A stretch of 64,000 nt of DNA, taken from positions 248,001 through 312,000 of the forward strand of contig JAHBUH010000002.1 in NCBI GenBank assembly GCA_019638185.1, written 5' to 3'. The notes beneath the pieces are model-generated. The model was not told the DNA's origin and made no database searches. It saw only the letters and a list, made by a program, of their open reading frames with translations. Every line of letters starts with the position of its first letter. Positions within the stretch are counted from its first letter, which is position 1. The DNA comes from Leadbetterella sp. (GTDB taxonomy: Bacteria; Bacteroidota; Bacteroidia; Cytophagales; Spirosomataceae). The position numbers were made by a program, and so were the translations under genes. Positions 44,612 through 56,646 of the stretch are shown here, in pieces.

Positions 44612-46564
44612 ATGAGCGAGTCAAGTTTAGAACCGAAAAAAATGGAAGACATTAATGAGGGGAAAAAAGTTTCTGACACATCTGTGGAGCAGCCTTCTTC
44701 TGCTGCGGAGGGCGAAACGCCTGTGCCGGTAGAAGAAACGGCCGGTACTTCTGCAGACCTGGAAGCTATAGAGGAGATCGAAGAAGAATCGGAACCTATC
44801 CTTGAAATTGACGAAGACTTTTCCCATTATTCCAAGAAAGACTTCGTTGACCTGGCTGACCGCCTGCTGGAATCCATGAATGCCCGCACCCTCACGGTGG
44901 CGGACGTGAAGAATATTGATAATGCTCTGAAAGTGGTGCGCAGTGCTTTTGATGAAATTCACCAGCAGGAGAAGAGCGAGGCGCTGGCCGGCTATATCGC
45001 CGAGAACGGATCGGATGAGGGCTTTGAATTCCGGAACGATAATTTTTCGATCCGTTTTGAAGGCATCATGATCCAGATCCGGGAGAAGCGGCAGGCTTTC
45101 TTCCATAAACTGGAGCGTGAGAAAGAAGATTATTTCGAAGTGAAGACCCGCCTGCTTCAGCGGCTACGGGATATCGTAGACACGGAAGAACGCGGCGAAT
45201 CTAAAAATAACTGGGAAGCGTTTAAAGGCCTCCAGACCGAGTGGAAGAATGCCGGCAATATCAATTCGCCGCATAACGGCTCGCTGTGGTCGGCCTATAA
45301 TGCCCTGGTAGACCGGTATTTTGATATCCGGAGCATCCAGAATGAGCTGAAAGACCTGGACAGGAAGAAGAATATTGAGGCAAAAGAGGCCGTGGTGGTG
45401 AAGATCGAGGAGATCGCCCAGGTACTGGAAGCTACGCCCATCAATAACGTTACCCTGAAGAAAGCGAATGAGCTGCTGCAGGAGTACAAGCACATCGGCC
45501 CGGGCCCGAGAGAAGAGCAGGATGTGCTTTGGGAGCGGCTGAAAAAGGCTTTTGATGTGATTTACGATAAGAAGCGTGAGTTGCAGAAAGAGAGCTCGGA
45601 GCTTTCCGAAGAAGTATTAAAGGCCAAAAACCAGCTGCTGGCTAACCTCCAGGCCTACCTGGAATTTAACAGCGATTCCATCAACGAGTGGAACGCCAAA
45701 ACCCGCGAGGTACAGGCCATCCAGGATCAGTGGAACGCCATTAAAGGCGGAATGCCCCGGGAGAAAGGAAAAGAGGTGAGCAAAAGCTTCTGGAGCACGC
45801 TTAAGCAGTTTTTTAAACACAAAAGTGAGTTTTTTGCGAAGCTGGAAGCTAAGCGGGAGGCGAACTACAAAGCTAAGAGCGAGCTGGTACAGCAGGTGAA
45901 GGAGATCCTGGAAAAAGGCGATTATTCGGCCCCGAATACGAACCGGATCATTGACCTCCAGAAAAAATGGAAGACCATAGGCCACGTGCCGGAAAAATAC
46001 AAAGACAGTCTGTTTGAAGAATTTAAGGCCGCATGCGATACCTATTTCAATAACAAGCGTGACGAGAGCAAGGTCCAGGATTCGGAATACGACAAGAACC
46101 TGGCCGCCAAAACTGCTATCTGTGAGGAAATAGAGAAGCTGGTATCCGAAGGCGAAACTAACCTGGGTCGTCTACCGGAGTTCAAGAAGGCCTTTAATGC
46201 CATCGGTTTTGTGCCGAGAAAGGAGATGAAGCCCATCCAGGACCGGTTTATTAAAGCTATTAACTCGTATGTGAAATCAGCCAGCGGACTGGAGAAGTCG
46301 GAAAAAGACAAGCTCATGATGCAGAACGAAGCCGAGGTGGTGCTGAAGTCAGGCGGAAACCTGAACAAGACCGAAAGCGAGCTCCGCCGGAAGATCAAGA
46401 CGCTGGAAGACGAGATCACGCTGACTAAAAATAACCTGGAGTTCTTCGGCTATTCCAAAAATGCCGACAAGCTTCGGGCCGAGTACCAGAAGAAGATCGA
46501 TAAGGGAGAAGCCGAGCTGAAAGAGCTGAACGCGAAGCTCCGGTTAATCGTGGCGGCGAACTAA
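44612..46564 (+). CDS. DUF349 domain-containing protein
   Basis: 650 residues. After an acidic N-terminus (about 1-75, rich in Glu, Pro and Thr) the protein is almost entirely helical with repeated DUF349 units: WEAFKGLQTEWKNAGNI (about 200), WNAKTREVQAIQDQWNAIKG (about 355), IIDLQKKWKTIGHVPEKYKDS (about 450) and EFKKAFNAIGFVPRKEMKP (about 535). Each has the W-x-x-x-G hallmark. The C-terminus is a coiled coil (LEDEITLTKNNLEFFG). DUF349 proteins are common in Bacteroidota and several bacteria but their role is not established; a link to ribosome or tRNA handling has been suggested for some. The gene is followed directly by tRNA-Thr with its own promoter. Confidence 0.85.
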   Translation: MSESSLEPKKMEDINEGKKVSDTSVEQPSSAAEGETPVPVEETAGTSADLEAIEEIEEESEPILEIDEDFSHYSKKDFVDLADRLLESMNARTLTVADVKNIDNALKVVRSAFDEIHQQEKSEALAGYIAENGSDEGFEFRNDNFSIRFEGIMIQIREKRQAFFHKLEREKEDYFEVKTRLLQRLRDIVDTEERGESKNNWEAFKGLQTEWKNAGNINSPHNGSLWSAYNALVDRYFDIRSIQNELKDLDRKKNIEAKEAVVVKIEEIAQVLEATPINNVTLKKANELLQEYKHIGPGPREEQDVLWERLKKAFDVIYDKKRELQKESSELSEEVLKAKNQLLANLQAYLEFNSDSINEWNAKTREVQAIQDQWNAIKGGMPREKGKEVSKSFWSTLKQFFKHKSEFFAKLEAKREANYKAKSELVQQVKEILEKGDYSAPNTNRIIDLQKKWKTIGHVPEKYKDSLFEEFKAACDTYFNNKRDESKVQDSEYDKNLAAKTAICEEIEKLVSEGETNLGRLPEFKKAFNAIGFVPRKEMKPIQDRFIKAINSYVKSASGLEKSEKDKLMMQNEAEVVLKSGGNLNKTESELRRKIKTLEDEITLTKNNLEFFGYSKNADKLRAEYQKKIDKGEAELKELNAKLRLIVAAN

Positions 46565-46759: not shown

Positions 46760-47827
46760 ATGAAATATAAATTTCTGAACGATTACAGCGAGGGCTGCCA
46801 CCCCCTGATCCTGGAAAATCTGGCGAAATCCAATCTTTCCCAGCAGGCCGGGTACGGGAACGACGAGCTGTCGGCCAGGGCCGTTTCCAAGATTAAGGCG
46901 GCCTGCGAAAATGAGAACGTGGATGTCCACCTGGTGGCCGGTGGCACCCTGGCTAACCTGTTGGTGATAGCGGCGCTGCTGAAGCCTTACGAGTCCGTGA
47001 TCTCCGCAGAAAGCGGCCACATCAATACCCATGAGGCGGGGGCCATTGAAGCCACCGGGCATAAGATAGAATATGTCAGAAGTGACGACGGCAAGCTTAG
47101 CGTGTCCGGTATAGCCCGCCTGCTGATGAAGTTTCCGAAATATCATACCGTAAAGCCGCGACTGGTGTACCTTTCCAACTCCACCGAGCTGGGTACAGTG
47201 TATTCCCGGGAGGAGCTGGAGGATATTTATCACTATTGCTCCAAAAACGATCTGCTGGTCTTTATAGACGGCGCCCGGCTACCCATGGCGCTAGTAGCCA
47301 GCGGACTCAGCCTGGCCGATATTTCGGGCCTCTGTGACGTATTTTATATTGGCGGAACCAAATGCGGTGCCCTTCTGGGTGAGGCTATCGTGGTAGTGAA
47401 CCCGGCGCTTCAGATCGATTTTCAATACAATATCAAGCAAAGGGGCGCCATGCTGGCCAAAGGCCGGGTGCTGGGAGCGCAGTTTGATACCCTTTTTACC
47501 GACGACCTTATCTTTAACCTGGCGCGACACGCTAACGCCATGGCGGCTAAAATAGCCACGGCTTTTCAGAACCTGGGCTACCGGTTTCTTTGTCCGGCAG
47601 AAAGTAACCAGGTGTTTCCCATTCTGAAATACAGCCAGATCAAAAAACTGGCGGAGAAGTACGAGTTTTTCGAGTGGGAAGAGCTGGATGAAGACCATTC
47701 AGCTCTTCGTTTAGTGACTTCCTGGGCTACGCCGGAAGAAGCCGTAGACCGCTTCCTGAAAGACCTGAAGTCGGTGACTCCCGTGGCGGCAGCCCGCCGG
47801 GTTATCCCCTCAGGTGATACGCTTTAG
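46760..47827 (+). CDS. Threonine aldolase-like PLP lyase (beta-eliminating lyase family)
   Basis: 355 residues, fold type I PLP enzyme: VHLVAGGTLANLLV near the N-terminus, ESGHINTHEAGAIEATGHK (cofactor-stacking His), NSTELGTVYSREEL, FIDGARLP with the PLP-binding Asp/Arg, and YIGGTKCGALLGEAIVV with the Lys for the Schiff base. This is the threonine aldolase/beta-eliminating lyase subfamily, which splits L-threonine or allo-threonine to glycine and acetaldehyde. The gene is convergent with the aldehyde dehydrogenase of the minus-strand operon, overlapping it by 26 bp. No promoter box is evident in the short gap after the tRNA terminator. Confidence 0.88.
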   Translation: MKYKFLNDYSEGCHPLILENLAKSNLSQQAGYGNDELSARAVSKIKAACENENVDVHLVAGGTLANLLVIAALLKPYESVISAESGHINTHEAGAIEATGHKIEYVRSDDGKLSVSGIARLLMKFPKYHTVKPRLVYLSNSTELGTVYSREELEDIYHYCSKNDLLVFIDGARLPMALVASGLSLADISGLCDVFYIGGTKCGALLGEAIVVVNPALQIDFQYNIKQRGAMLAKGRVLGAQFDTLFTDDLIFNLARHANAMAAKIATAFQNLGYRFLCPAESNQVFPILKYSQIKKLAEKYEFFEWEELDEDHSALRLVTSWATPEEAVDRFLKDLKSVTPVAAARRVIPSGDTL

Positions 47828-49166
47828 GCTGCACAAAGGCCCGGATGCCCAGGTGCGATAAAGTGGCGCCCAGGCCGCTGTTTTTACGCCCGGACCACGG
47901 CAGGCCCGCGCTTACGCGGTCGCAGCAGTTCCAGTACACCGTGCCCGTATTGAGCCGGGAAAACAGGCGGTGAGCTCTTTCCTCACTGCTGGAGTACACC
48001 GCCGCAGTAAGCCCGTAAGGCGTATCCTGCATCAGCTCCAGGGCCTCTTCGTCTGAACTGACTTTCCGGATGCCTATCACGGGGCCGAAGGATTCCTCGG
48101 TCATGATTTTCATGGTATGATCAGCGTCTGCTATAACGGTGGGTTCAAAGAAATAGCCTTTACCCGCTATGGCGTGTCCGCCTGCCAGCAGCCTGCCGCC
48201 TTTGCTCAGGGCGTCGCTGACCTGGTCCGTTAAAAAGGCCTGCTGCTCTTTCCGGCTTAGCGGGCCTATTTCCGTTCCTTCGGCGGCGGGATCCCCGGTT
48301 TTCATTTTTTGGGTGGCTTCGGCGAAAGCTTCCACGAAAGGCTCATAGATATTTTCATGCACATAGATGCGCTCTACCGCGCAGCAGCTCTGCCCGTTAT
48401 TATACATAGCGCCTTCCAGGGCGGCTTCGGCCACCTGGCGGAGGTCTGCCACGTCATCAGCCACATACAGGGGGTCTTTGCCGCCTAGTTCCAGTTGCAC
48501 CGGAACCAGCCGCCCGGCCACCTGGGAGGCGATATACTGCCCGGTTTTGAAGCTACCGGTAAAATAGTAACCGTCTAAAGGCAGGTCCAGCAGAGCCTGG
48601 CCGGCTTCTGCTTTTCCGGCTACCAGTACGAAAACGTCTTCCGGGATGCCGCTTTTATACAGCAGGCGCTGAATATGCGCGCCGGTGAGGGTGGCGTATT
48701 CCGAGGGTTTGTAGAGCACGCCATTTCCGCCGATCAGCGCCGGGATAAATACGTTCACACCCACCAGGTAAGGGTAGTTCCAGGCGGAGATGTTCCCGAT
48801 CACGCCCAGCGGCTCGTAGACGATTTTCTCGCGGGTGGCCGCTTCTTCGGTGATCCACTCGTCAGCCAGCCATTTTTCACTGTTTTCTATAAAAAAGCGG
48901 ATGCGGCTTTGGGCACCGGCCAGCTCATTCTGCGACTGCCACAGGGGTTTTCCCATTTCCTGCGTGAGGGTAAGGGCCAGGGTGTCTTTTTCTTCTTCCA
49001 GCAGCCCGCAAAACCGCGAAATGCATGCAATACGCTCTTTTAAAGGCACCAGGGCCCATTTTTGCTGGCCATTTTTTACGGCCCGGTATTTTTCGGATAT
49101 GGAAGACCGGGTGTCTTCCTGTACGTCAGCGATGACGGATTCGTCAAAGGGATTAATGATTTTCAT
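47802..49166 (-). CDS. Aldehyde dehydrogenase, last gene of a gamma-glutamylation operon
   Basis: 454 residues; NAD(P)-dependent ALDH with the catalytic Cys in NNGQSCCAVER (near 262), the general base Glu in LELGGKDP (near 228), the cofactor loop GSFKTGQYIA and the C-terminal TEESFGPVIGI and NSGLG. Related to succinate-semialdehyde/gamma-glutamylaldehyde dehydrogenases (PuuC-like). It would oxidise the aldehyde formed by the iron alcohol dehydrogenase, giving gamma-glutamylglycine if the substrate is ethanolamine. Gap to the C26 hydrolase gene is 5 bp. Its 3' end overlaps the convergent aldolase gene. Confidence 0.88.
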   Translation of the reverse strand: MKIINPFDESVIADVQEDTRSSISEKYRAVKNGQQKWALVPLKERIACISRFCGLLEEEKDTLALTLTQEMGKPLWQSQNELAGAQSRIRFFIENSEKWLADEWITEEAATREKIVYEPLGVIGNISAWNYPYLVGVNVFIPALIGGNGVLYKPSEYATLTGAHIQRLLYKSGIPEDVFVLVAGKAEAGQALLDLPLDGYYFTGSFKTGQYIASQVAGRLVPVQLELGGKDPLYVADDVADLRQVAEAALEGAMYNNGQSCCAVERIYVHENIYEPFVEAFAEATQKMKTGDPAAEGTEIGPLSRKEQQAFLTDQVSDALSKGGRLLAGGHAIAGKGYFFEPTVIADADHTMKIMTEESFGPVIGIRKVSSDEEALELMQDTPYGLTAAVYSSSEERAHRLFSRLNTGTVYWNCCDRVSAGLPWSGRKNSGLGATLSHLGIRAFVQPKAYHLRG

Positions 49167-49171
49167 TGTTT

Positions 49172-49864
49172 CTATCGGGATAAGCAGGCTTCAAAGAAAG
49201 CCTGGCGTATATTTTTAACAAAAGGACTCTGCTGGTCGTTCATGCGCTCAGGGTGCCACTGCACCAGGGAAAGGTGTGGCCCGGGCGTGCATCGCTCCAG
49301 GGCTTCCACCACGCCGTCTTCCGATAAGGCAGAAACGATCAGTCCGTGCCCCACTTTCTCCACACTCTGGTGGTGGTTACTGTTGATCCACCCCTCTTTT
49401 TCCTGTACCAGCCGGAACAGGGCGGAGGCCGGGTCTACTTTTACGCCGTGGTATCGGTCAGTGTTGTCCGGCATCTTGCTGTGGTTAAACTTTCCCCAGG
49501 TGGGAATGTCCGGGATCAGCGTACCGCCGAAAAACACATTGGCTACCTGGAGCCCGCGGCAGATGCCCAGTACGGGCAGTTCGTGGCTCTGGGAATATTC
49601 CAGTACTTTCCATTCCAGTTCGTCCCGCTCTTCATTCACGTCATCGGCGTGGCAGTAGGGCAGCCATTCCGGCCGGTCATAGAAGCGGGGATGCACATCT
49701 TCCCCGCCGGTCAGTACTATCCCGTGGCAGGCGCTTATCTGCGAAAAACTGTCGTCTTTCCAGCTTAAACGCAAAGTTTTTACCTCCGGATGGTAGTTCA
49801 GGATCCAGTTATTGTAAAGATCGTACTTGCTGCAATCTGTCAGGCCTATGGTCAGCGATTTCAT
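49172..49864 (-). CDS. Gamma-glutamyl hydrolase of the C26 family (PuuD-like)
   Basis: 230 residues; class I glutamine amidotransferase-like fold with the nucleophile Cys in GICRGLQ (near 120), VLTGGEDVHPRFY as the glutamyl-binding loop, SNHHQSVEKVG, and the catalytic His/Glu in WHPE. Members hydrolyse gamma-glutamyl-GABA and related gamma-glutamyl amides to free glutamate. In this operon it would cut the gamma-glutamyl product of the ALDH step. It is 5 bp upstream of the ALDH gene and 3 bp downstream of the iron alcohol dehydrogenase gene. Confidence 0.9.
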   Translation of the reverse strand: MKSLTIGLTDCSKYDLYNNWILNYHPEVKTLRLSWKDDSFSQISACHGIVLTGGEDVHPRFYDRPEWLPYCHADDVNEERDELEWKVLEYSQSHELPVLGICRGLQVANVFFGGTLIPDIPTWGKFNHSKMPDNTDRYHGVKVDPASALFRLVQEKEGWINSNHHQSVEKVGHGLIVSALSEDGVVEALERCTPGPHLSLVQWHPERMNDQQSPFVKNIRQAFFEACLSR

Positions 49865-49867
49865 GGA

Positions 49868-51016
49868 CTACCAGGCTTTCAGGTACAGGGTTTTAAAATC
49901 TTCCCGGGTCACCGGCTTGGGGTTATTCGGGTGGGCAAAATCCGCCAGGGCCAGGTCAGCGAGGGTCTCAATATGCTCTTCTTTTACGCCGATCTCCCTG
50001 AGCCGGGCCGGGATGCCTATGCGGCTGTTCAGTTCGGCCAGGTCCTGCACCACGCCTTCGCCGGATTCATTTTTGAGCTCCAGATGGCGGGCTATATTCC
50101 GGAATTTATCTTCAAAGCCGGCTATGTTAAACTCCATCCCGTAGGGCAGGTTAACGGCATTGGCCAGGCCGTGGTGGGTATCTAAAAGAGACGATAGCGG
50201 GTGCGCCAGCGAGTGCACTACGCCCAGCCCTTTCTGGAAGGCAATGGCCCCCATCATGGAACCCAGGAGCATTTCTGCGCGGGATTCCAGGTCCGGGCGT
50301 AAGGTAGCTCTCTCAATAGCCCCGTGCACCAGCTTCATGCCTTCCAGCGCGATGCCGTCGCACATGGGATGGTAATTTTTAGCCAGGTAAGCCTCCAGGT
50401 TATGCGTGAGGGCATCCATGCCCGTAGCGGCGGTGATGGCCGCGGGGATATCCATGGTCAGGAGGGGATCGGCAAATACGACCTGCGCCATCAGCTTAGG
50501 CGAGAACAGGATCTTCTTCTGATGGGTTTCATCGTCGGCAATAATGGCGCTGCGGCCTACTTCCGAGCCGGTTCCGGAGGTAGTAGGCACGGTAATAAAA
50601 TGGGGTACATCGTTAGTGACATACACGTCTCCGCCGATCAGGTCATCGTATTTGAAGAGGTCTTCGCGGTGGTAAATCCGGAGCACAATGGCCCGGGCCA
50701 CGTCCAGGCCGGCGCCCCCACCGATTCCCACCACGCTGTCGCGCCCGGTATTATCCCACACCTCGGTGCCTTTGTACACGTCTGATTTCACCGGGTTTTT
50801 ATGGATGTCAGAGAATACTTCCGTACTGATGCCGTTTTTCTGCAGGTCGGTGATGATCGCTTTAAAAAAGGGCAGCTGGGCCACCACCGGGTCAGTAACA
50901 ATTAACGGAGCTTTAAGATGGTGGGATTTTAAATAAGCGGGCAGCTCTTTAGCTGCACCGGCCCCAAACCGGATGGTAGTGGGGAAATTGTATTGACGCA
51001 CTGTATTGAAGTCCAT
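49868..51016 (-). CDS. Iron-containing alcohol dehydrogenase
   Basis: 382 residues; group III (iron-dependent) ADH. The NAD-binding signature is VGIGGGAGLDVARAI, with GTGSEVGRSAII, the metal-ligand region ATGMDALTHNLEAY (Asp, His) and HSLAHPLSSLLDTHHGLANAVNLP (His residues). In this operon it most simply oxidises the alcohol of a gamma-glutamyl amino alcohol to the aldehyde. That replaces the FAD oxidase PuuB, which is required for amines such as putrescine but is not encoded here. It lies 8 bp downstream of the glutamine synthetase-like gene. Confidence 0.9.
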   Translation of the reverse strand: MDFNTVRQYNFPTTIRFGAGAAKELPAYLKSHHLKAPLIVTDPVVAQLPFFKAIITDLQKNGISTEVFSDIHKNPVKSDVYKGTEVWDNTGRDSVVGIGGGAGLDVARAIVLRIYHREDLFKYDDLIGGDVYVTNDVPHFITVPTTSGTGSEVGRSAIIADDETHQKKILFSPKLMAQVVFADPLLTMDIPAAITAATGMDALTHNLEAYLAKNYHPMCDGIALEGMKLVHGAIERATLRPDLESRAEMLLGSMMGAIAFQKGLGVVHSLAHPLSSLLDTHHGLANAVNLPYGMEFNIAGFEDKFRNIARHLELKNESGEGVVQDLAELNSRIGIPARLREIGVKEEHIETLADLALADFAHPNNPKPVTREDFKTLYLKAW

Positions 51017-51024
51017 ATAAAAAT

Positions 51025-52386
51025 TTAAATTATTTCAAGATAACGTTTTAGTTCCCAGTCGGTTACTACTTTGCTGAACTGCCTCCATTCCCATTCCCGG
51101 GTGCCTGTAAAATGCTCAACGAATTTTTCGCCGAACAGTTCCTTCGCCACCGCTGAATTTTTCATGGCCTGGGTAGCTTCCCAAAGGTTAGCGGGCAGCA
51201 GCCCGTTTTTCCGGTCGGCATAACCGTTTCCGATGCTGGCCGGGGTAGTCAGCTTCATGTTTTGCTGTACGCCATAGAACCCGGCGGCCAGGCAGGCCGC
51301 AATGGCCAGGTAAGGGTTGGAATCGGAGCCCACCACCCGGGTTTCCAGGCGGGTGCTTTTGGAGCTTCCGGGCAATGCCCTCAGGGCCGTGGTACGGTTA
51401 TCCACCGCCCAGGTAAGCGTGGTAGGGGCCCAGGCGCCTTCCACCAGTCGCTTATAGCTGTTTACTGTAGGGGCAAACATGGGCAGGATAAAGGGAAGAC
51501 AGTAGAGCTGCCCTGCTATATAACTTTCCATCAGGGCGCTGATATGATGAGGGGCATCGGCGTCATAGAAAAGGTTTTTTGCTTTGTCGGCCGTCCACAG
51601 GCTCTGGTGAACATGGCCGCTGCAGCCCGGCAGCGACTCGTGAAATTTAGCCATAAACGTGGGCAGAATACCGTGGCGGTGCCCTATTTCTTTGACCCCT
51701 GATTTAAAGAGCACGGCCCGGTCTGCGGCTTCCAGGGCTTCAGAATAGGTAATGGCCGCTTCGTACACCCCGGGCCCGGTTTCGGTATGAATGCCTTCCA
51801 GCGGAACGCCAAACTGCCCGAGGAGGTCAAACAGGTCGTGAAAAAAGGCGCTGTTCTGGGAGGCTCTTAACACGGAGTAGCCAAACATGCCCTGAGTGAG
51901 AGGCCGGGTGCGGTTAAAGCCTTCCTTATGCAGCTCAGGGCCGTTATCTTCCAGGTTAAACCATTCAAATTCCTGGGAGCAGAAGGCGTGGTAACCGGCC
52001 CGGGTTATTTTTTGGGTGACATTTTTCAGCAAGGTACGGGGGCATACTTCGGCGCAGTTAGCGTCTGTACTGAAGTCGGCCAGGAAAAAGGGGAGCTGCT
52101 CTTCCCAGGGTACTTCGCGGAAGGTGCTGATGTCTATGATCGCTGTGGCATCGGGGTAGCCGCTATGCCAGCCGGTTACGCGGGCATTGTCATAGGCTAC
52201 GTCACCGGCGTCCCATCCGAAGATCACATCGCAGAAGCCGAAGCCGCTTTTGACAATAGAAGCAAATTTCTCAAAGCTGACCACTTTGCCGCGGAGAATG
52301 CCGTCAATGTCCGTAACGGCCAGCTTTACTTTGGTGGTATTGGCGGCACTTAATTTTTCAAGAAGCCGGGTTAACTCATCGTTCAT
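51025..52386 (-). CDS. Glutamine synthetase-like gamma-glutamyl amine ligase (PuuA/GlnA4 type)
   Basis: 453 residues with the GS_N and GS catalytic folds: AVTDIDGILRGK opens the N-terminal part, ETGPGVYEAAI is the metal Glu motif, GCSGHVHQSLW the GS ATP site, and MFAPTVNSYKRL and NRTTALR are the substrate loop. It lacks the adenylylation-type loop of GlnA and is of the PuuA/IpuC/GlnA4 kind, which joins glutamate to a primary amine instead of ammonia using ATP. In this operon it would activate the amine imported by the neighbouring permease. It overlaps the permease gene by 4 bp, so the two are coupled. Confidence 0.9.
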   Translation of the reverse strand: MNDELTRLLEKLSAANTTKVKLAVTDIDGILRGKVVSFEKFASIVKSGFGFCDVIFGWDAGDVAYDNARVTGWHSGYPDATAIIDISTFREVPWEEQLPFFLADFSTDANCAEVCPRTLLKNVTQKITRAGYHAFCSQEFEWFNLEDNGPELHKEGFNRTRPLTQGMFGYSVLRASQNSAFFHDLFDLLGQFGVPLEGIHTETGPGVYEAAITYSEALEAADRAVLFKSGVKEIGHRHGILPTFMAKFHESLPGCSGHVHQSLWTADKAKNLFYDADAPHHISALMESYIAGQLYCLPFILPMFAPTVNSYKRLVEGAWAPTTLTWAVDNRTTALRALPGSSKSTRLETRVVGSDSNPYLAIAACLAAGFYGVQQNMKLTTPASIGNGYADRKNGLLPANLWEATQAMKNSAVAKELFGEKFVEHFTGTREWEWRQFSKVVTDWELKRYLEII

Positions 52387-53711
52387 ATTGATCGGGGTTT
52401 AACAAAGAAATGAAACCAGGCATATCCCAGTAAAAGGAGCAGGAAAAACACAAGGGCCACACCGGTATTATAAATGATCATGGCGATCATGGCCACCACG
52501 GCTATGACCAGCGAAATCACCGGGAACCAGGGGTAGAGCGGTACCTTGAAAGGCCGGGGCAATTCCGGGTTCTTCTTCCGGAGAATGAGTACGGTAACCG
52601 AAGAGAAAATATACAGCGTAATGGCCCCGAAGCAGGCAATGGTGATGATGTCACCGGTTTTCCCGGTGAGAAGGGCTATAATACCGATGACCATATTTAT
52701 CACCAGGGCATTGGCCGGTGTTTTGAACCGGGAATGCACTTTTCCGAAAAGGGAGGGAATATAATGGACCCGGCCGAATTCAAAAGTGGACCGGCCCGCC
52801 GCCAGGATGATCCCGTGGAAGGAGGCTACCAGCCCCAGCAGGCCCACGCTGATCAGGAGGTGGTACAGGAAGGCGTTATCACCGGTAATGACGGATAAGG
52901 CCAGGGGAAGCGGGGAATCAGAGGGCTCAGCGCCCGGATGGGGGTAAACGATGGTCTCCCAGCCGCCGATGCCCACTGCAGAAATAAAGGTCAGGATACA
53001 CAATATCACCAGGGTGAGCAAAGCCGAACCGAAGCCGATCAGCACATTCCGCTGGGGATTAATGGCTTCTTCGGCCACATTGGCCACCCCTTCAATGGCC
53101 AGAAAAAACCAGATGGCGAACGGAATGGCCGCCCAGGCTCCGGCCCAGCCGTTCGGTAAGGGGTTTTTGTGCAGGTTTTCCATTTCAAAGTGGGGCAGGG
53201 TCACCCCTGCAAAAATCAGGAGCTCCACCACCGCCAGGATGGTAATGACCAGCTCAAAGGTGGCCGCCGCCTTTACGCCGTAGATGTTAAGCCCGGTAAA
53301 AATCAGGTAGGCGGCAATGGATATGGCAATGACCGGGATGCCGGGGAAAAACAGGTGAAAATAAGCACCGATAGCCGCAGCAATGGCCGGAGGCGCAAAG
53401 ACAAATTCAATGATCTGGGCCAGGCCGGCGATAAACCCGGCGTCTTTGCCCAGGGCTTTGGTGGCGTAATCAAATACCCCTCCGGCTTTGGGAATAGCGC
53501 AGGCCAGCTCCGTATACGAAAAGGTAAAAGTGACATACATAATGATGATGAGGAAAGTGGCTGCTGCCAGGCCGTAGGTGCCGCCGGCTTCCAGGCCGAG
53601 ATTCCAGCCGAAGTACATCCCGGAGATTACATAGCCTACGCCAAGTCCCCACAGCATCAGCGGGCCGAGGGTTCGCGACAAGTGGTTTTCAGGAAGGTTG
53701 GGTTTTGACAT
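52383..53711 (-). CDS. APC-family permease, ethanolamine permease-like
   Basis: 442 residues from MSKPNLPENHLSRTLGP (an ATG at 53726 and a longer frame to 53771 are also open). It has about twelve helices of the amino acid-polyamine-organocation superfamily. The first helix GLGVGYVISGMYFGWN and the next GGTYGLAAATF are close to ethanolamine permease (Eat/EutP-type) sequences, and the broken helix-1 Gly motif is present. It would import ethanolamine or a similar amino alcohol by proton exchange. It is the first gene of the operon and overlaps the ligase gene by 4 bp. The divergent Ldh-type gene starts 86 bp away. Confidence 0.85.
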   Translation of the reverse strand: MSKPNLPENHLSRTLGPLMLWGLGVGYVISGMYFGWNLGLEAGGTYGLAAATFLIIIMYVTFTFSYTELACAIPKAGGVFDYATKALGKDAGFIAGLAQIIEFVFAPPAIAAAIGAYFHLFFPGIPVIAISIAAYLIFTGLNIYGVKAAATFELVITILAVVELLIFAGVTLPHFEMENLHKNPLPNGWAGAWAAIPFAIWFFLAIEGVANVAEEAINPQRNVLIGFGSALLTLVILCILTFISAVGIGGWETIVYPHPGAEPSDSPLPLALSVITGDNAFLYHLLISVGLLGLVASFHGIILAAGRSTFEFGRVHYIPSLFGKVHSRFKTPANALVINMVIGIIALLTGKTGDIITIACFGAITLYIFSSVTVLILRKKNPELPRPFKVPLYPWFPVISLVIAVVAMIAMIIYNTGVALVFFLLLLLGYAWFHFFVKPRSI

Positions 53712-53797
53712 ATTCTGAATTTTCATGCTAAATATAGGAAAAGTTGATGCAGGAAATAAAAAAATATGCACATCTTTACTCGTATGGAGGGGGATAT

Positions 53798-54901
53798 ATG
53801 GAAAAAGCCCCTGTGTATAAAACGATGAGTATGTATAAAGCAGATAAAATCAGGAAGTTTACGGAACAAGTCTTCAAATCCATCGGCTGCCCGGCCAAAG
53901 ACGCCCGCCTGGCCGCCGATATCCTGGTCAGTGCCGACCTGAACGGCGTGGATTCCCACGGTGTGGCCCGACTGGCCGGCTATGTACGCCTTTATGATCA
54001 CGGCCGGCTGAACCCCGCGCCGGAGATTAAAGTCATTCACGAAACGCCTTCCACGGCTACCGTAGACGGTGACCGGGGCCTGGGCCTGGTGGTGGCGCCT
54101 TATGCTATGAAACTGGCCATGAAAAAGGCCAAAAAGACCGGTTCCGGCTGGGTTTCCGTTCAGAATTCCAATCACTTCGGAATAGCGGGCTACCACGCCT
54201 CGCTGGCCCTGGAGCAAGACATGATAGGCTGGGCCATGACCAATGCCGCCCCCCTGGTGGTTCCCACGTTTTCCCGGGAAAAATTATTAGGTACCAATCC
54301 CATTGCCGTGGCTGTACCGGCGGGTGAACAGCCGGCCTTCCTGGCCGATTTTGCCACTACAGCGGTGGCCTACGGCAAGATGGAGATCCTGCAGCGGAAA
54401 GGCGAAAAGGCGCCCATCGGGTGGGTACAGGATGAGGCCGGGAATCCTACCGATAATGCCAATGCGGTGAAAGAAGGTGGCGGCCTCCTGCCGCTGGGCG
54501 GTGACCGCGAGCACGGCAGCCACAAAGGCTACGGGCTGGGCGCCGTGGTGGATATCTTCTCCGGCGTGCTGTCAGGGGCTAATTTCGGCCCGTGGGTGCC
54601 GCCCTTTGCCACCGCCGGCTTCCAGGGAGTAGCCGCTGAACAGGTAGGCAGGGGCACGGGGCATTTCCTGGGCGCCATGCGGATAGACGGCTTCCGCCCC
54701 AAAGAAGAGTTTAAGGCCCACATGGATAAGTGGATCACGCGCTTCCGCTCGGCAAAAGCCGTAGACGGCCAAAGCGTGCAGATCCCCGGCGACCAGGAGC
54801 GCCGTTATAAAGCCGAGCGCCTGGCGCAGGGGATCCCGCTGAATGATAAAGTAGTGGAGAGCCTGGCGGAATTAGGGGAGCGGTTCGGAATAAAGTGGTA
54901 A
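53798..54901 (+). CDS. Malate/L-lactate dehydrogenase-family oxidoreductase (Ldh2 type)
   Basis: 367 residues from the ATG at 53798, which has a strong Shine-Dalgarno-like GGAGGGGG six bases before it (53787-53793); the frame is open further up and inner ATGs at 53825 and 53831 exist. It has the NAD-dependent Ldh2 fold: SADLNGVDSHGVARLAGYVR (catalytic His and Arg), NSNHFGIAGYHASLAL (substrate and NAD binding) and EHGSHKGYGLGAVVDI. The family reduces 2-oxoacids such as pyruvate, or acts on malate, ureidoglycolate or 2-oxopantoate. It diverges from the ethanolamine-type operon and could serve it or just neighbour it. Confidence 0.88.
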   Translation: MEKAPVYKTMSMYKADKIRKFTEQVFKSIGCPAKDARLAADILVSADLNGVDSHGVARLAGYVRLYDHGRLNPAPEIKVIHETPSTATVDGDRGLGLVVAPYAMKLAMKKAKKTGSGWVSVQNSNHFGIAGYHASLALEQDMIGWAMTNAAPLVVPTFSREKLLGTNPIAVAVPAGEQPAFLADFATTAVAYGKMEILQRKGEKAPIGWVQDEAGNPTDNANAVKEGGGLLPLGGDREHGSHKGYGLGAVVDIFSGVLSGANFGPWVPPFATAGFQGVAAEQVGRGTGHFLGAMRIDGFRPKEEFKAHMDKWITRFRSAKAVDGQSVQIPGDQERRYKAERLAQGIPLNDKVVESLAELGERFGIKW

Positions 54902-54906
54902 TAACC

Positions 54907-56646
54907 TTATTGTTTTTCCATCCAGATCCGGTTCAGCCATAGTTCCCGGTTACCGGCCACCCGGAATTCCACTTTGTTTTTACCGGGCGTTTTAAGGGTG
55001 ATTTTGCCCAAATTCCGGTCGGTAAATTCATCGGTGTAATTTTTTTCATTGGGCTCCACCACCACTTTGCCGTCCGGGTTCAGCGTGCCTTTCAGCACGG
55101 TGTCTCCCACCTTTATTTCTATGGCCAGGGGATGGGCGGAGGGATTATGGGCCGATACGTCTATTTTGTAGGTTCCTTCTTCAGGCAGGTAGACTTCCCA
55201 CTGCAATGGTTCTGCAGCCGTAATGATCCGCTCCGGCCGGGTGCCGTCGTATTTCTTTATGGTAAAATTCCCGGCATTCAAGAGGTTAGAGGCATTCAGG
55301 GCAAACCCGCCGAAGGTAGATTCTGCGGCTATATTTTTATCCAGGGAGATATCATCAAATTCCAGCTTAATAATGGAATTATAACCATCAGCCGGTCTTT
55401 TGGGTACTTTGATATGCATCAGCGGGCCCCATTGCTCAAGGGTCAGCTCCCGGGTCTTGCCGTTTTCCAGCAGCAGCTGAGCACTTTTCGGAGTGCTGGT
55501 GATGCCGGAAACCCGCAGCGTCTGATCCAGTGGCCAGTTAAATACGTGAAGGTATACTTCGTTACCTGATTTCGTTATTTTACCCCAGTCGTGCTGGTTA
55601 GGCCTCAGGCCCACGCCGGTATTGTTATAAACGGCCTGGCCGTAATGGCCCAGCCATTTGCCCAGGTCTTCCAGGCGGGATACGCTTTCCCACGACAGGG
55701 AGCCGTCTGCCCGCGGACCGATATTCAGCGTGTAGCCACCGTTCAGGCTGACGTTCCCGATCAGCGATTTGAAGAGCTGGGCACTGGATTTCCATTCCTT
55801 TTCCTGGCCGTTATAGCCCCAGGAGTGGGCTATGGTCCCGGGCGTTTCCCAGGGATGGGTGATGTATTGAGAGCCGAAAACGTTATCGCCCAGGGTCTGG
55901 AAATCCACGTATTTGGTGTCGGCAGGTAAGCCCAGCCGCGAGTTAATCAGGCAGTTAGGCTGTAATTCCCGGATAAGGTTAGCGGCTTGTTCCAGCTGCT
56001 CTTTTTTGAAGATGCTTTTTTCGTAGGGGATCCACATATCAAACCACATGATGGCGATATCGCCGTAGTTGGTCAGCAGCTCCCGCAGCTGGGGGATGGC
56101 CTTTTCCTGCCAGTACTGGTTAAACTGCTCGTCGGTCACCCGGCCTTTTATTTCCTGGTTATGATCCCAGGCGTAGGGGTGTTCCCAGTCTATCCAGTGC
56201 GAATAGTAGAAACCCAGCTTCATGTCGTGCTTTTTGCAGGCGGCCGCCAGTTCTTTGAGCACATCGCGGCCGGAGCCCGACAGGTTAGGCAGGGAGTAGT
56301 TACCTACTTTGGTATCCCACAGGGCCACGCCATCGTGATGTTTGGAGGTCATGATGATGTATTTCATGCCTGATTTTTTAGCCAGGAGCACCCATTCTTC
56401 GGGGTTGATATTCTCCCAGTCGAAACGCTTGGCCAGTTCCCCGTATTCTTCCTTGGAGATCCGGTTCCGGTAGCGTATCCATTCGGCGTAATTATTCCTG
56501 TACCGTAAATTTTCCCCTTTCCACATTCCTTCAGCGGCGGAGTAGAGTCCCCAGTGAATAAACATACCGAAGCGGGCTTTTTCAAACCATGAGGATTGGG
56601 CCTGTGTGGCAAAGGAGATCAGGCATAAAATAAAAACTTTCTTCAT
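54907..56646 (-). CDS. Alpha-L-fucosidase, GH29
   Basis: 579 residues with a signal peptide (KKVFILCLISFATQA). The GH29 barrel fills about 17-345: WFEKARFGMFIHWGLYS, TSKHHDGVALWDT, GFYYSHWIDW and IAIMWFDMW, where the Asp (near residue 201) is the nucleophile. The rest (about 350-579) is a C-terminal beta-sandwich/carbohydrate-binding part. It removes terminal alpha-L-fucose from glycans in the periplasm. It is convergent with the Ldh gene (5 bp) and divergent from the NTF2-like gene. Confidence 0.9.
   Translation of the reverse strand: MKKVFILCLISFATQAQSSWFEKARFGMFIHWGLYSAAEGMWKGENLRYRNNYAEWIRYRNRISKEEYGELAKRFDWENINPEEWVLLAKKSGMKYIIMTSKHHDGVALWDTKVGNYSLPNLSGSGRDVLKELAAACKKHDMKLGFYYSHWIDWEHPYAWDHNQEIKGRVTDEQFNQYWQEKAIPQLRELLTNYGDIAIMWFDMWIPYEKSIFKKEQLEQAANLIRELQPNCLINSRLGLPADTKYVDFQTLGDNVFGSQYITHPWETPGTIAHSWGYNGQEKEWKSSAQLFKSLIGNVSLNGGYTLNIGPRADGSLSWESVSRLEDLGKWLGHYGQAVYNNTGVGLRPNQHDWGKITKSGNEVYLHVFNWPLDQTLRVSGITSTPKSAQLLLENGKTRELTLEQWGPLMHIKVPKRPADGYNSIIKLEFDDISLDKNIAAESTFGGFALNASNLLNAGNFTIKKYDGTRPERIITAAEPLQWEVYLPEEGTYKIDVSAHNPSAHPLAIEIKVGDTVLKGTLNPDGKVVVEPNEKNYTDEFTDRNLGKITLKTPGKNKVEFRVAGNRELWLNRIWMEKQ

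What the first reader, a model, noticed from the sequence alone, without database searches (positions are those of the whole stretch)
47802..53711. Five-gene operon for gamma-glutamylation-type use of an amino alcohol (probably ethanolamine)
Seen: permease, GS-like ligase, iron alcohol dehydrogenase, C26 hydrolase and ALDH lie on one strand with gaps of 8, 3 and 5 bp and one 4-bp overlap. Family knowledge: PuuA/PuuC/PuuD use the same logic for putrescine but need the FAD oxidase PuuB, and GlnA4-type ligases glutamylate ethanolamine in Streptomyces. Inference: an alcohol dehydrogenase replaces PuuB and the transporter resembles ethanolamine permease, so the route is ethanolamine to gamma-glutamylethanolamide, then aldehyde, then gamma-glutamylglycine, then glutamate plus glycine. 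This needs no B12-dependent ammonia-lyase or microcompartment. I do not know of it being described in this phylum.
Basis: partly seen in the sequence, partly recalled or inferred. Interest (0 to 1): 0.72.

Follow-up and report, generated by a model that had tools for sequence, protein, structure and literature searches.

The report
B12-free ethanolamine-eating operon
Five neighbouring genes in a Bacteroidota bacterium most likely take up ethanolamine, tag it with glutamate and oxidise it to glycine, a known pathway from other bacterial groups that here seems to stand in for the usual vitamin-B12 enzyme.

Summary
The operon is real and as described: five same-strand genes, one 4-bp overlap, gaps of 8, 3 and 5 bp. 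Permease, ligase, iron alcohol dehydrogenase, C26 hydrolase and aldehyde dehydrogenase recur in this order in 49 of the 80 related loci kept, 37 of the 53 with enough flank. The ligase keeps the metal, glutamate and ATP residues of glutamine synthetase but has Trp for Glu327 in all 63 cassette ligases aligned. The permease passes NCBI's ethanolamine-permease cut-off. The best plasmid-borne relatives of both dehydrogenases mostly lie beside gamma-glutamyl ligases, many of the Chromohalobacter type. In 150 genomes of the family, the cassette dehydrogenase (27) and ethanolamine ammonia-lyase EutB (74) never co-occur, also within two mixed genera. The chemistry is not new: the same steps are reported for Chromohalobacter, Agrobacterium and Phaeobacter, and the first step for Streptomyces. 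New here are the phylum (as far as my searches go), the permease and hydrolase used, and the apparent swap with EutBC. Verdict: a new variant of a known pathway.

The parts
52383..53711 (-). APC-type permease, ethanolamine permease family (Eat, TIGR00908)
   Evidence: 447.4 bits, cut-off 381.75; 20 of the 25 plasmid rows listed are annotated ethanolamine permease; of three looked at, two lie beside eutBC, one beside a primary-amine oxidase.
51025..52386 (-). Glutamine-synthetase-like gamma-glutamyl ligase, proposed gamma-glutamylethanolamide synthetase
   Evidence: Gln-synt_C; metal/Glu/ATP residues kept, Glu327 replaced by Trp; tree.
49868..51016 (-). Iron-type alcohol dehydrogenase, proposed gamma-glutamylethanolamide dehydrogenase
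   Evidence: D201, H205, H268, H282 conserved (their role as metal ligands is recalled); 18 of the first 22 plasmid rows lie within about 5 kb of a GS-like ligase.
49172..49864 (-). Peptidase C26 / class I amidotransferase-like hydrolase, proposed gamma-glutamylglycine hydrolase
   Evidence: Peptidase_C26; C102, H204 and E206 conserved.
47802..49166 (-). Aldehyde dehydrogenase, proposed gamma-glutamyl-aminoacetaldehyde dehydrogenase
   Evidence: Aldedh; E226 and Cys261/262 motifs closer to ALDHs of ethanolamine clusters than to PuuC; 23 of the 25 plasmid rows listed lie beside a GS-like ligase.

Best explanation
The five genes form a catabolic operon for ethanolamine by gamma-glutamylation. 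The permease imports ethanolamine. The GS-like ligase joins it to the gamma-carboxyl of glutamate with ATP, giving gamma-glutamylethanolamide. The iron ADH oxidises the hydroxyl to the aldehyde, the ALDH oxidises that to gamma-glutamylglycine, and the C26 hydrolase splits it into glutamate and glycine. Glutamate is recycled; the net yield is glycine plus two reduced nicotinamide cofactors (inferred from the families) for one ATP, without B12, free acetaldehyde or a microcompartment. Shown by sequence: gene set, order, families, active-site residues, conservation, absence of EutB. Inferred: substrate, order of steps, co-transcription.
For: (1) The permease passes the ethanolamine-permease cut-off, as do the permeases of four of four other cassettes tested and that beside EutBC in one of two relatives tested. 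(2) Ligase: the listed metal, Glu and ATP residues are kept and Glu327 is Trp in 63 of 63 cassette ligases, the window's included; GlnA4 has Phe and PauA7 Trp there (PMC6529630, passages). (3) The published Phaeobacter ethanolamine cluster (RpiR, amidohydrolase, TRAP x3, ligase, ALDH, ADH; PMC10132767 section 9) has the same gene order as Ruegeria sp. B32, where the ADH is iron-type. (4) 18 of the first 22 plasmid rows for the window's iron ADH, and 23 of the 25 rows for its ALDH, lie within about 5 kb of a GS-like ligase, out of 2,044 and 10,684 places matched in all; some rows are near-copies (four of the 18 are Paracoccus denitrificans). (5) Cassette ADH 27 of 150, EutB 74 of 150, both 0 of 150. 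In genus g1: 3 with the ADH only, 4 with EutB only, 3 with neither; in g17: 1 and 8. (6) One cluster of the published type (Aminobacter) adjoins bhc genes, a route that can consume glycine (recalled).
Against: No assay or growth data for any Bacteroidota member. TIGR00908 may cover carriers of other small amines; one plasmid homologue lies beside a primary-amine oxidase. The window ligase is distant from the ethanolamine ligases (34% identical to the Ruegeria one) and in the tree groups with other plasmid ligases of unproven substrate. S. coelicolor GlnA4 itself was not compared. The hydrolase and transporter are of other families than those of the published cluster, and the best plasmid relatives of the C26 hydrolase do not point to ethanolamine: 4 of 15 listed rows are near a GS-like ligase, three of these in rhizobitoxine-like sets and one near ipuC. 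The exclusion test ignores kinship (Fisher p 9e-10; within the two mixed genera p 0.009) and is not significant in 395 genomes of the class (42 with the ADH, 16 with EutB, 0 with both, p 0.40). In 10 of the 27 ADH genomes the ADH lies away from the ligase.
Confidence: 0.83

Rival explanations
1. Same chemistry, but the natural substrate is another primary amino alcohol, such as 2-aminopropanol, serinol or 3-aminopropanol, with the matching gamma-glutamyl amino acid as last intermediate.
For: The enzymes only require an amine and a primary alcohol. A ligase 46% identical lies in a Rhizobium gene set with a desaturase and a 2-aminoethylphosphonate-transaminase-like protein that resembles rhizobitoxine synthesis (resemblance recalled), where an amino diol would be the partner. 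The C26 hydrolase also has relatives in such sets.
Against: Permease family, dehydrogenases nearest to those of ethanolamine-type clusters, exclusion with EutB. A secondary alcohol such as 1-amino-2-propanol would give a ketone and leave the ALDH without a substrate.
Confidence: 0.11
2. A putrescine or other polyamine pathway of the Puu type.
For: Ligase, ALDH and C26 hydrolase are the same broad families as PuuA, PuuC and PuuD.
Against: No PuuB-like oxidase in the operon; PuuB was compared with the 8 best of 20 DAO-family matches of the own genome, and the best is 23% identical and elsewhere. Ligase scores 199 bits against a cut-off of 650 for the gamma-glutamylputrescine model. An alcohol dehydrogenase has no evident role on a diamine. 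ALDH motifs are closer to ethanolamine-cluster ALDHs than to PuuC.
Confidence: 0.02
3. Use of isopropylamine-type amines as with IpuC.
For: Ligase 39% identical to IpuC of Paenarthrobacter aurescens TC1.
Against: Three loci of this type that I looked at carry P450 and ferredoxin genes; the window operon has none. IpuC falls outside the cassette clade.
Confidence: 0.02
4. The ligase is a spare glutamine synthetase and the neighbours are unrelated.
For: Best NCBIfam matches are glutamate-ammonia ligase models, though far below cut-off (221 against 470 bits).
Against: Glu327 lost in all 63 cassette ligases; gene order conserved across Bacteroidota and some Bdellovibrionota; the genome holds another Gln-synt_C match in a 740-residue frame, the size of a type III glutamine synthetase (recalled).
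Confidence: 0.02

Closest known systems
Ethanolamine gamma-glutamylation of Chromohalobacter salexigens / Agrobacterium (Vetting et al. 2015) and Phaeobacter sp. MED193 (EtoX cluster, PMC10132767)
   Same: GS-like ligase, ALDH and, by gene order, iron ADH; same four chemical steps; dehydrogenases of clusters of this type are among the best plasmid relatives of the window's.
   Different: There: TRAP transporter EtoVWX, RpiR regulator, FGase-type amidohydrolase. Here: APC permease, C26 hydrolase, no regulator in or next to the operon. Vetting et al. was not held; I know its content only through PMC10132767 and recall.
GlnA4 pathway of Streptomyces coelicolor (PMC6529630)
   Same: First step shown biochemically there; the same later steps are proposed there.
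   Different: There a short-chain dehydrogenase for the alcohol step and a proposed formylglutamate-amidohydrolase-family hydrolase; a glutamine amidotransferase gene is also listed nearby (passages). Its sequences were not compared here.
Puu pathway of Escherichia coli
   Same: PuuA, PuuC, PuuD share broad families and logic.
   Different: Amine oxidase PuuB instead of an alcohol dehydrogenase; PuuA lies outside the clade.
EutBC / Eat short ethanolamine operon
   Same: Same permease family; same presumed substrate.
   Different: B12-dependent lyase to acetaldehyde and ammonia; EutB never with the cassette ADH in 150 family genomes.

Membership tests
Ethanolamine gamma-glutamylation pathway | GS-like ligase lacking the ammonia-specific flap Glu | tested here: met
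   Trp at position 327 in 63 of 63 cassette ligases, the window's included; Phe in the three EtoX-type ligases aligned.
Ethanolamine gamma-glutamylation pathway | Alcohol and aldehyde dehydrogenases linked to the ligase | tested here: met
Ethanolamine gamma-glutamylation pathway | Linked gamma-glutamyl hydrolase | tested here: met
   A C26-family hydrolase is present; it is of another family than the FGase of the published cluster.
Ethanolamine gamma-glutamylation pathway | Ligase acts on ethanolamine | not testable with these tools
   Needs an assay.
EtoX-type cluster (Proteobacteria) | TRAP transporter EtoVWX, RpiR regulator and FGase-type hydrolase | tested here: not met
   None among the eight genes at 46760-56646 that were classified.
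Ethanolamine permease family TIGR00908 | Score over curated cut-off | tested here: met
   447.4 against 381.75 bits.
Puu putrescine pathway | PuuB-type oxidase and PuuA-level ligase | tested here: not met
   No oxidase in the operon; ligase 199 bits against 650; best PuuB match elsewhere 23%.
EutBC ethanolamine ammonia-lyase pathway | EutB in the genome | tested here: not met
   No match in the own genome (95% complete); E. coli control positive.
Glutamine synthetase proper | Glu327 and over-cut-off score | tested here: not met
IpuC isopropylamine pathway | Linked P450 and ferredoxin | tested here: not met
   Absent in the window operon; present at the three plasmid loci seen.

The most novel reading that the evidence does not exclude
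The cassette is a portable, B12-free replacement for EutBC: in Bacteroidota it and EutBC exchange within single genera, using permeases of one ethanolamine family, and the ligase has further been recruited to at least one other pathway (ligase + unknown protein + HAD phosphatase) in genomes that mostly keep EutBC.
Probability: 0.52. Interest if true: 0.58.

Novelty: new variant of a known kind. Interest (0 to 1): 0.47.

Why it matters
Ethanolamine from membrane lipids is a common nitrogen and carbon source. If this holds, many Bacteroidota use it without B12 or microcompartments, and automated annotation ('glutamine synthetase', 'alcohol dehydrogenase', 'aldehyde dehydrogenase') hides this. 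The exclusion between the cassette and EutBC within two genera offers a natural experiment on what favours one route over the other, for example B12 supply.

Tried and rejected
Considered and rejected: putrescine (no PuuB, ligase far below the model's cut-off), isopropylamine (no P450), plain glutamine synthetase (flap Glu lost). Neighbours tested as possible further members and dropped: with tblastn at E 1e-8 and over 60 bits, the convergent beta-eliminating lyase (46760-47827) recurs in none of the 80 loci and the divergent Ldh_2 gene (from 53744) in one, weakly.

Led nowhere: class-wide exclusion test not significant. Structure model of the unknown protein beside the second ligase type had mean pLDDT 46 and was not used. 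That protein has no Pfam, NCBIfam or plasmid match and only a chance-level PDB match. The promoter scan found 7 promoter-like sites against 4.2 (sd 2.2) in shuffles; terminator-like sites were above shuffles (20 against 8.2, sd 2.7) but lie on both strands and mostly inside genes, so I draw nothing from them. Text searches: searches returned no paper; only 26 and 83 name the phylum.

Not done: dereplicating the loci before counting; a kinship-corrected test of exclusion; a comparison with S. coelicolor GlnA4; the neighbourhoods of the other plasmid rows (of 30 ADH rows listed, 18 lie near a ligase, 1 does not, 11 were not examined; of 25 ALDH rows, 23 lie near one, 1 does not, 1 was not examined; the row without is one Mesorhizobium plasmid).

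Limits: loci are the best 80 of 437 found, so counts lean to close relatives. The tree is a quick one with long outer branches and a midpoint root. The EutB count of 74 includes one match with two stops inside (G105) and two in long fusion-sized frames.

Full report
WHAT IS THERE. Searches confirm the families. Only the permease passes a curated NCBIfam cut-off (TIGR00908, ethanolamine permease, 447 against 382 bits). The other four proteins match broad families below the models' cut-offs.

IS IT A UNIT. A search of 84,980 species genomes with the ligase gave 437 relatives, of which the best 80 were kept. With tblastn for the five proteins, 49 of 80 loci have permease, ligase, iron ADH, C26 and ALDH in this order on one strand, gaps not limited. 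Of the 53 loci with at least 2.5 kb upstream and 6.5 kb downstream, 37 have all five, 4 have all but a detected permease, and 12 have fewer. Of the 27 loci with less flank, the numbers are 12, 4 and 11. The carriers are mainly labelled Chitinophagaceae and other Bacteroidota, plus three Bdellovibrionota contigs (one with five genes, two with four) and one labelled Beijerinckiaceae (five). Spacing varies; many carriers have about 100 bases between ligase and ADH, so the window's version is among the compact ones.

THE LIGASE. In a 115-row alignment the 63 ligases from loci with iron ADH and ALDH, the window's included, all keep the residues aligned to E129, E131, E212, E220, H269, H271, R321, R339, R344, E357 and R359 of E. 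coli glutamine synthetase, and all have Trp at Glu327. PMC6529630 (passages seen) reports Glu327 replaced by Phe in GlnA4 and by Trp in PauA7, and shows that GlnA4 makes gamma-glutamylethanolamide. Positions 50, 53 and 179 are unsure in this alignment and are not used. Trp at 327 is not specific to the cassette: it is also in IpuC and in the ligases of the other contexts below. In the tree the window ligase lies in a clade of 13 rows (support 100) whose other members are labelled Chitinophagaceae, Sphingobacteriales or plain Bacteroidetes, while two carriers of its own genus (G101, G022) lie elsewhere.

THE DEHYDROGENASES. PMC10132767 (section 9 read, other passages seen) describes a Phaeobacter operon with the order RpiR, gamma-glutamylglycine amidohydrolase, TRAP transporter of three genes, ethanolamine gamma-glutamylase, aldehyde dehydrogenase, gamma-glutamylethanolamide dehydrogenase. 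[quoted passage not shown] PDB 5dm3 is, I recall, the Chromohalobacter ligase. Its best plasmid relative, in Ruegeria sp. B32 (76%), has that same gene order, with an FGase-type hydrolase and an iron-type alcohol dehydrogenase; Paracoccus denitrificans is alike, and Aminobacter lacks the linked TRAP genes. That the Phaeobacter dehydrogenase is iron-type is thus inferred from gene order. Searching plasmids with the window's iron ADH (574 records), 18 of the first 22 rows lie within about 5 kb of a ligase found; one has no ligase nearby but an FGase-ALDH-ADH set, and three were not examined, nor were the last 8 of the 30 listed. With the window's ALDH (409 records, 10,684 places), 23 of the 25 listed rows lie within 1 kb of a ligase, one is the Mesorhizobium set just named, one was not examined. 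Rows include near-copies. ALDH motifs ([L/T]ELGGKDP, GQxCCxxER, E[S/T]FGP) are shared with the three ethanolamine-type ALDHs aligned, of which the Legionella one is my own assignment, and less with PuuC.

THE PERMEASE AND HYDROLASE. Permeases of four of four other cassettes tested pass the TIGR00908 cut-off, as does the permease beside EutBC in relative G125; the one beside EutBC in G084 has TIGR00908 as its best family but stays below cut-off. Of 12 EutB stretches fetched, 4 show a homologue of the window permease beside EutB. On plasmids 20 of 25 listed permease rows are annotated ethanolamine permease; of three neighbourhoods seen, two hold eutBC and one a primary-amine oxidase. The C26 hydrolase stands where the published cluster has an FGase. 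Its best plasmid relatives give no pointer to ethanolamine. A plasmid of Legionella lytica has ligase, ALDH, iron ADH and a class I amidotransferase in a row, so mixed sets occur elsewhere too.

EXCLUSION WITH EutB. The same 150 genomes of the family were searched with the ligase, EutB and the iron ADH (E up to 1e-100). ADH: 27; EutB: 74; both: 0; Fisher p 9e-10, not corrected for kinship. Among listed genomes of genus g1 three have the ADH (window included), four EutB, three neither; in g17 one has the ADH and eight EutB; pooled p 0.009. By coordinates the ADH is beside the ligase in 16 of the 27; in ten genomes of g27 it lies elsewhere, and in one fragmented genome on another contig. Of four g27 stretches fetched around the ADH, two hold C26 and ALDH within about 6 kb on the same strand, one has a C26-like gene some 6 kb off on the other strand and no ALDH, and one has neither. 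Of 61 genomes with a strong ligase match, 27 have the ADH, 31 EutB and 3 neither. In the class (395 genomes) ADH 42, EutB 16, both 0, p 0.40: same direction, but no evidence by itself.

MECHANISM. Ethanolamine uptake; ATP-dependent gamma-glutamylation; oxidation of alcohol, then aldehyde; hydrolysis to glutamate and glycine. Masking the amine with glutamate tames the amino aldehyde, and no free acetaldehyde arises (logic of gamma-glutamyl pathways, recalled). Shown: genes, order, residues, distribution. Inferred: substrate, step order, co-transcription.

KNOWN OR NEW. The chemistry is known in Proteobacteria and, in its first step, in Streptomyces. I found no paper on it in Bacteroidota, in a library of open-licence papers only. 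The variant parts are the APC permease and the C26 hydrolase; the most useful new result is the exclusion with EutB inside genera.

Noticed in passing
L079:10001-13255 and 15 other loci: In Spirosomataceae a ligase 55-62% identical to the window's is followed by a conserved protein of about 347 residues with no Pfam or NCBIfam match (motifs FVDWNIGN and WDYDW recall aminoglycoside/choline kinases) and often a HAD-IIA phosphatase: 16 loci with the first, 12 with the second, three genomes counted twice in each. Nine of the ten handled genomes also have EutB. 14 of the 15 ligases in the tree form one clade. Function unknown.
   Followed up: partly
L125, L126, L127, L128: In genus g27 the ligase stands between an ATP-grasp-like protein (below Pfam cut-off) and a GntP-type permease, away from the iron ADH; families checked in L127 only.
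   Followed up: partly
L104, L118: Rhizobium leguminosarum and Paraburkholderia sabiae plasmids have a GS-like ligase and a C26 hydrolase in a gene set with a desaturase, a 2-aminoethylphosphonate-transaminase-like protein and a PLP enzyme, like rhizobitoxine synthesis (recalled). Glutamyl protection of an amino-alcohol intermediate is possible.
   Followed up: no
L166:8099-10411: One 770-residue protein with EutB and EutC domains in a single chain. EutB matches in frames of 771-796 residues occur in seven genomes, this one included; the others were not checked for EutC.
   Followed up: partly
window 47802-53711: The cassette's ligase groups with Chitinophagaceae-type carriers, not with two carriers of the same genus, while a neighbouring gene (44612-46564) is 85% identical to one congener and 65-70% to eight others: horizontal arrival is likely, not proven.
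   Followed up: partly
window 46760-47827 and 47802-49166: The beta-eliminating-lyase gene and the ALDH gene converge and overlap by 26 bases.
   Followed up: no
window 53744-54901: Divergent Ldh_2-family gene beginning within about 90 bases of the operon start (start codon unsure); not conserved beside other cassettes.
   Followed up: partly
L117: On an Aminobacter plasmid the ethanolamine gamma-glutamylation genes adjoin the bhc genes.
   Followed up: no
L044:8138-11344: A ligase about 71% identical to the window's follows genes like phosphosulfolactate synthase and shikimate dehydrogenase (both below cut-off), without the other cassette genes in the stretch held.
   Followed up: no
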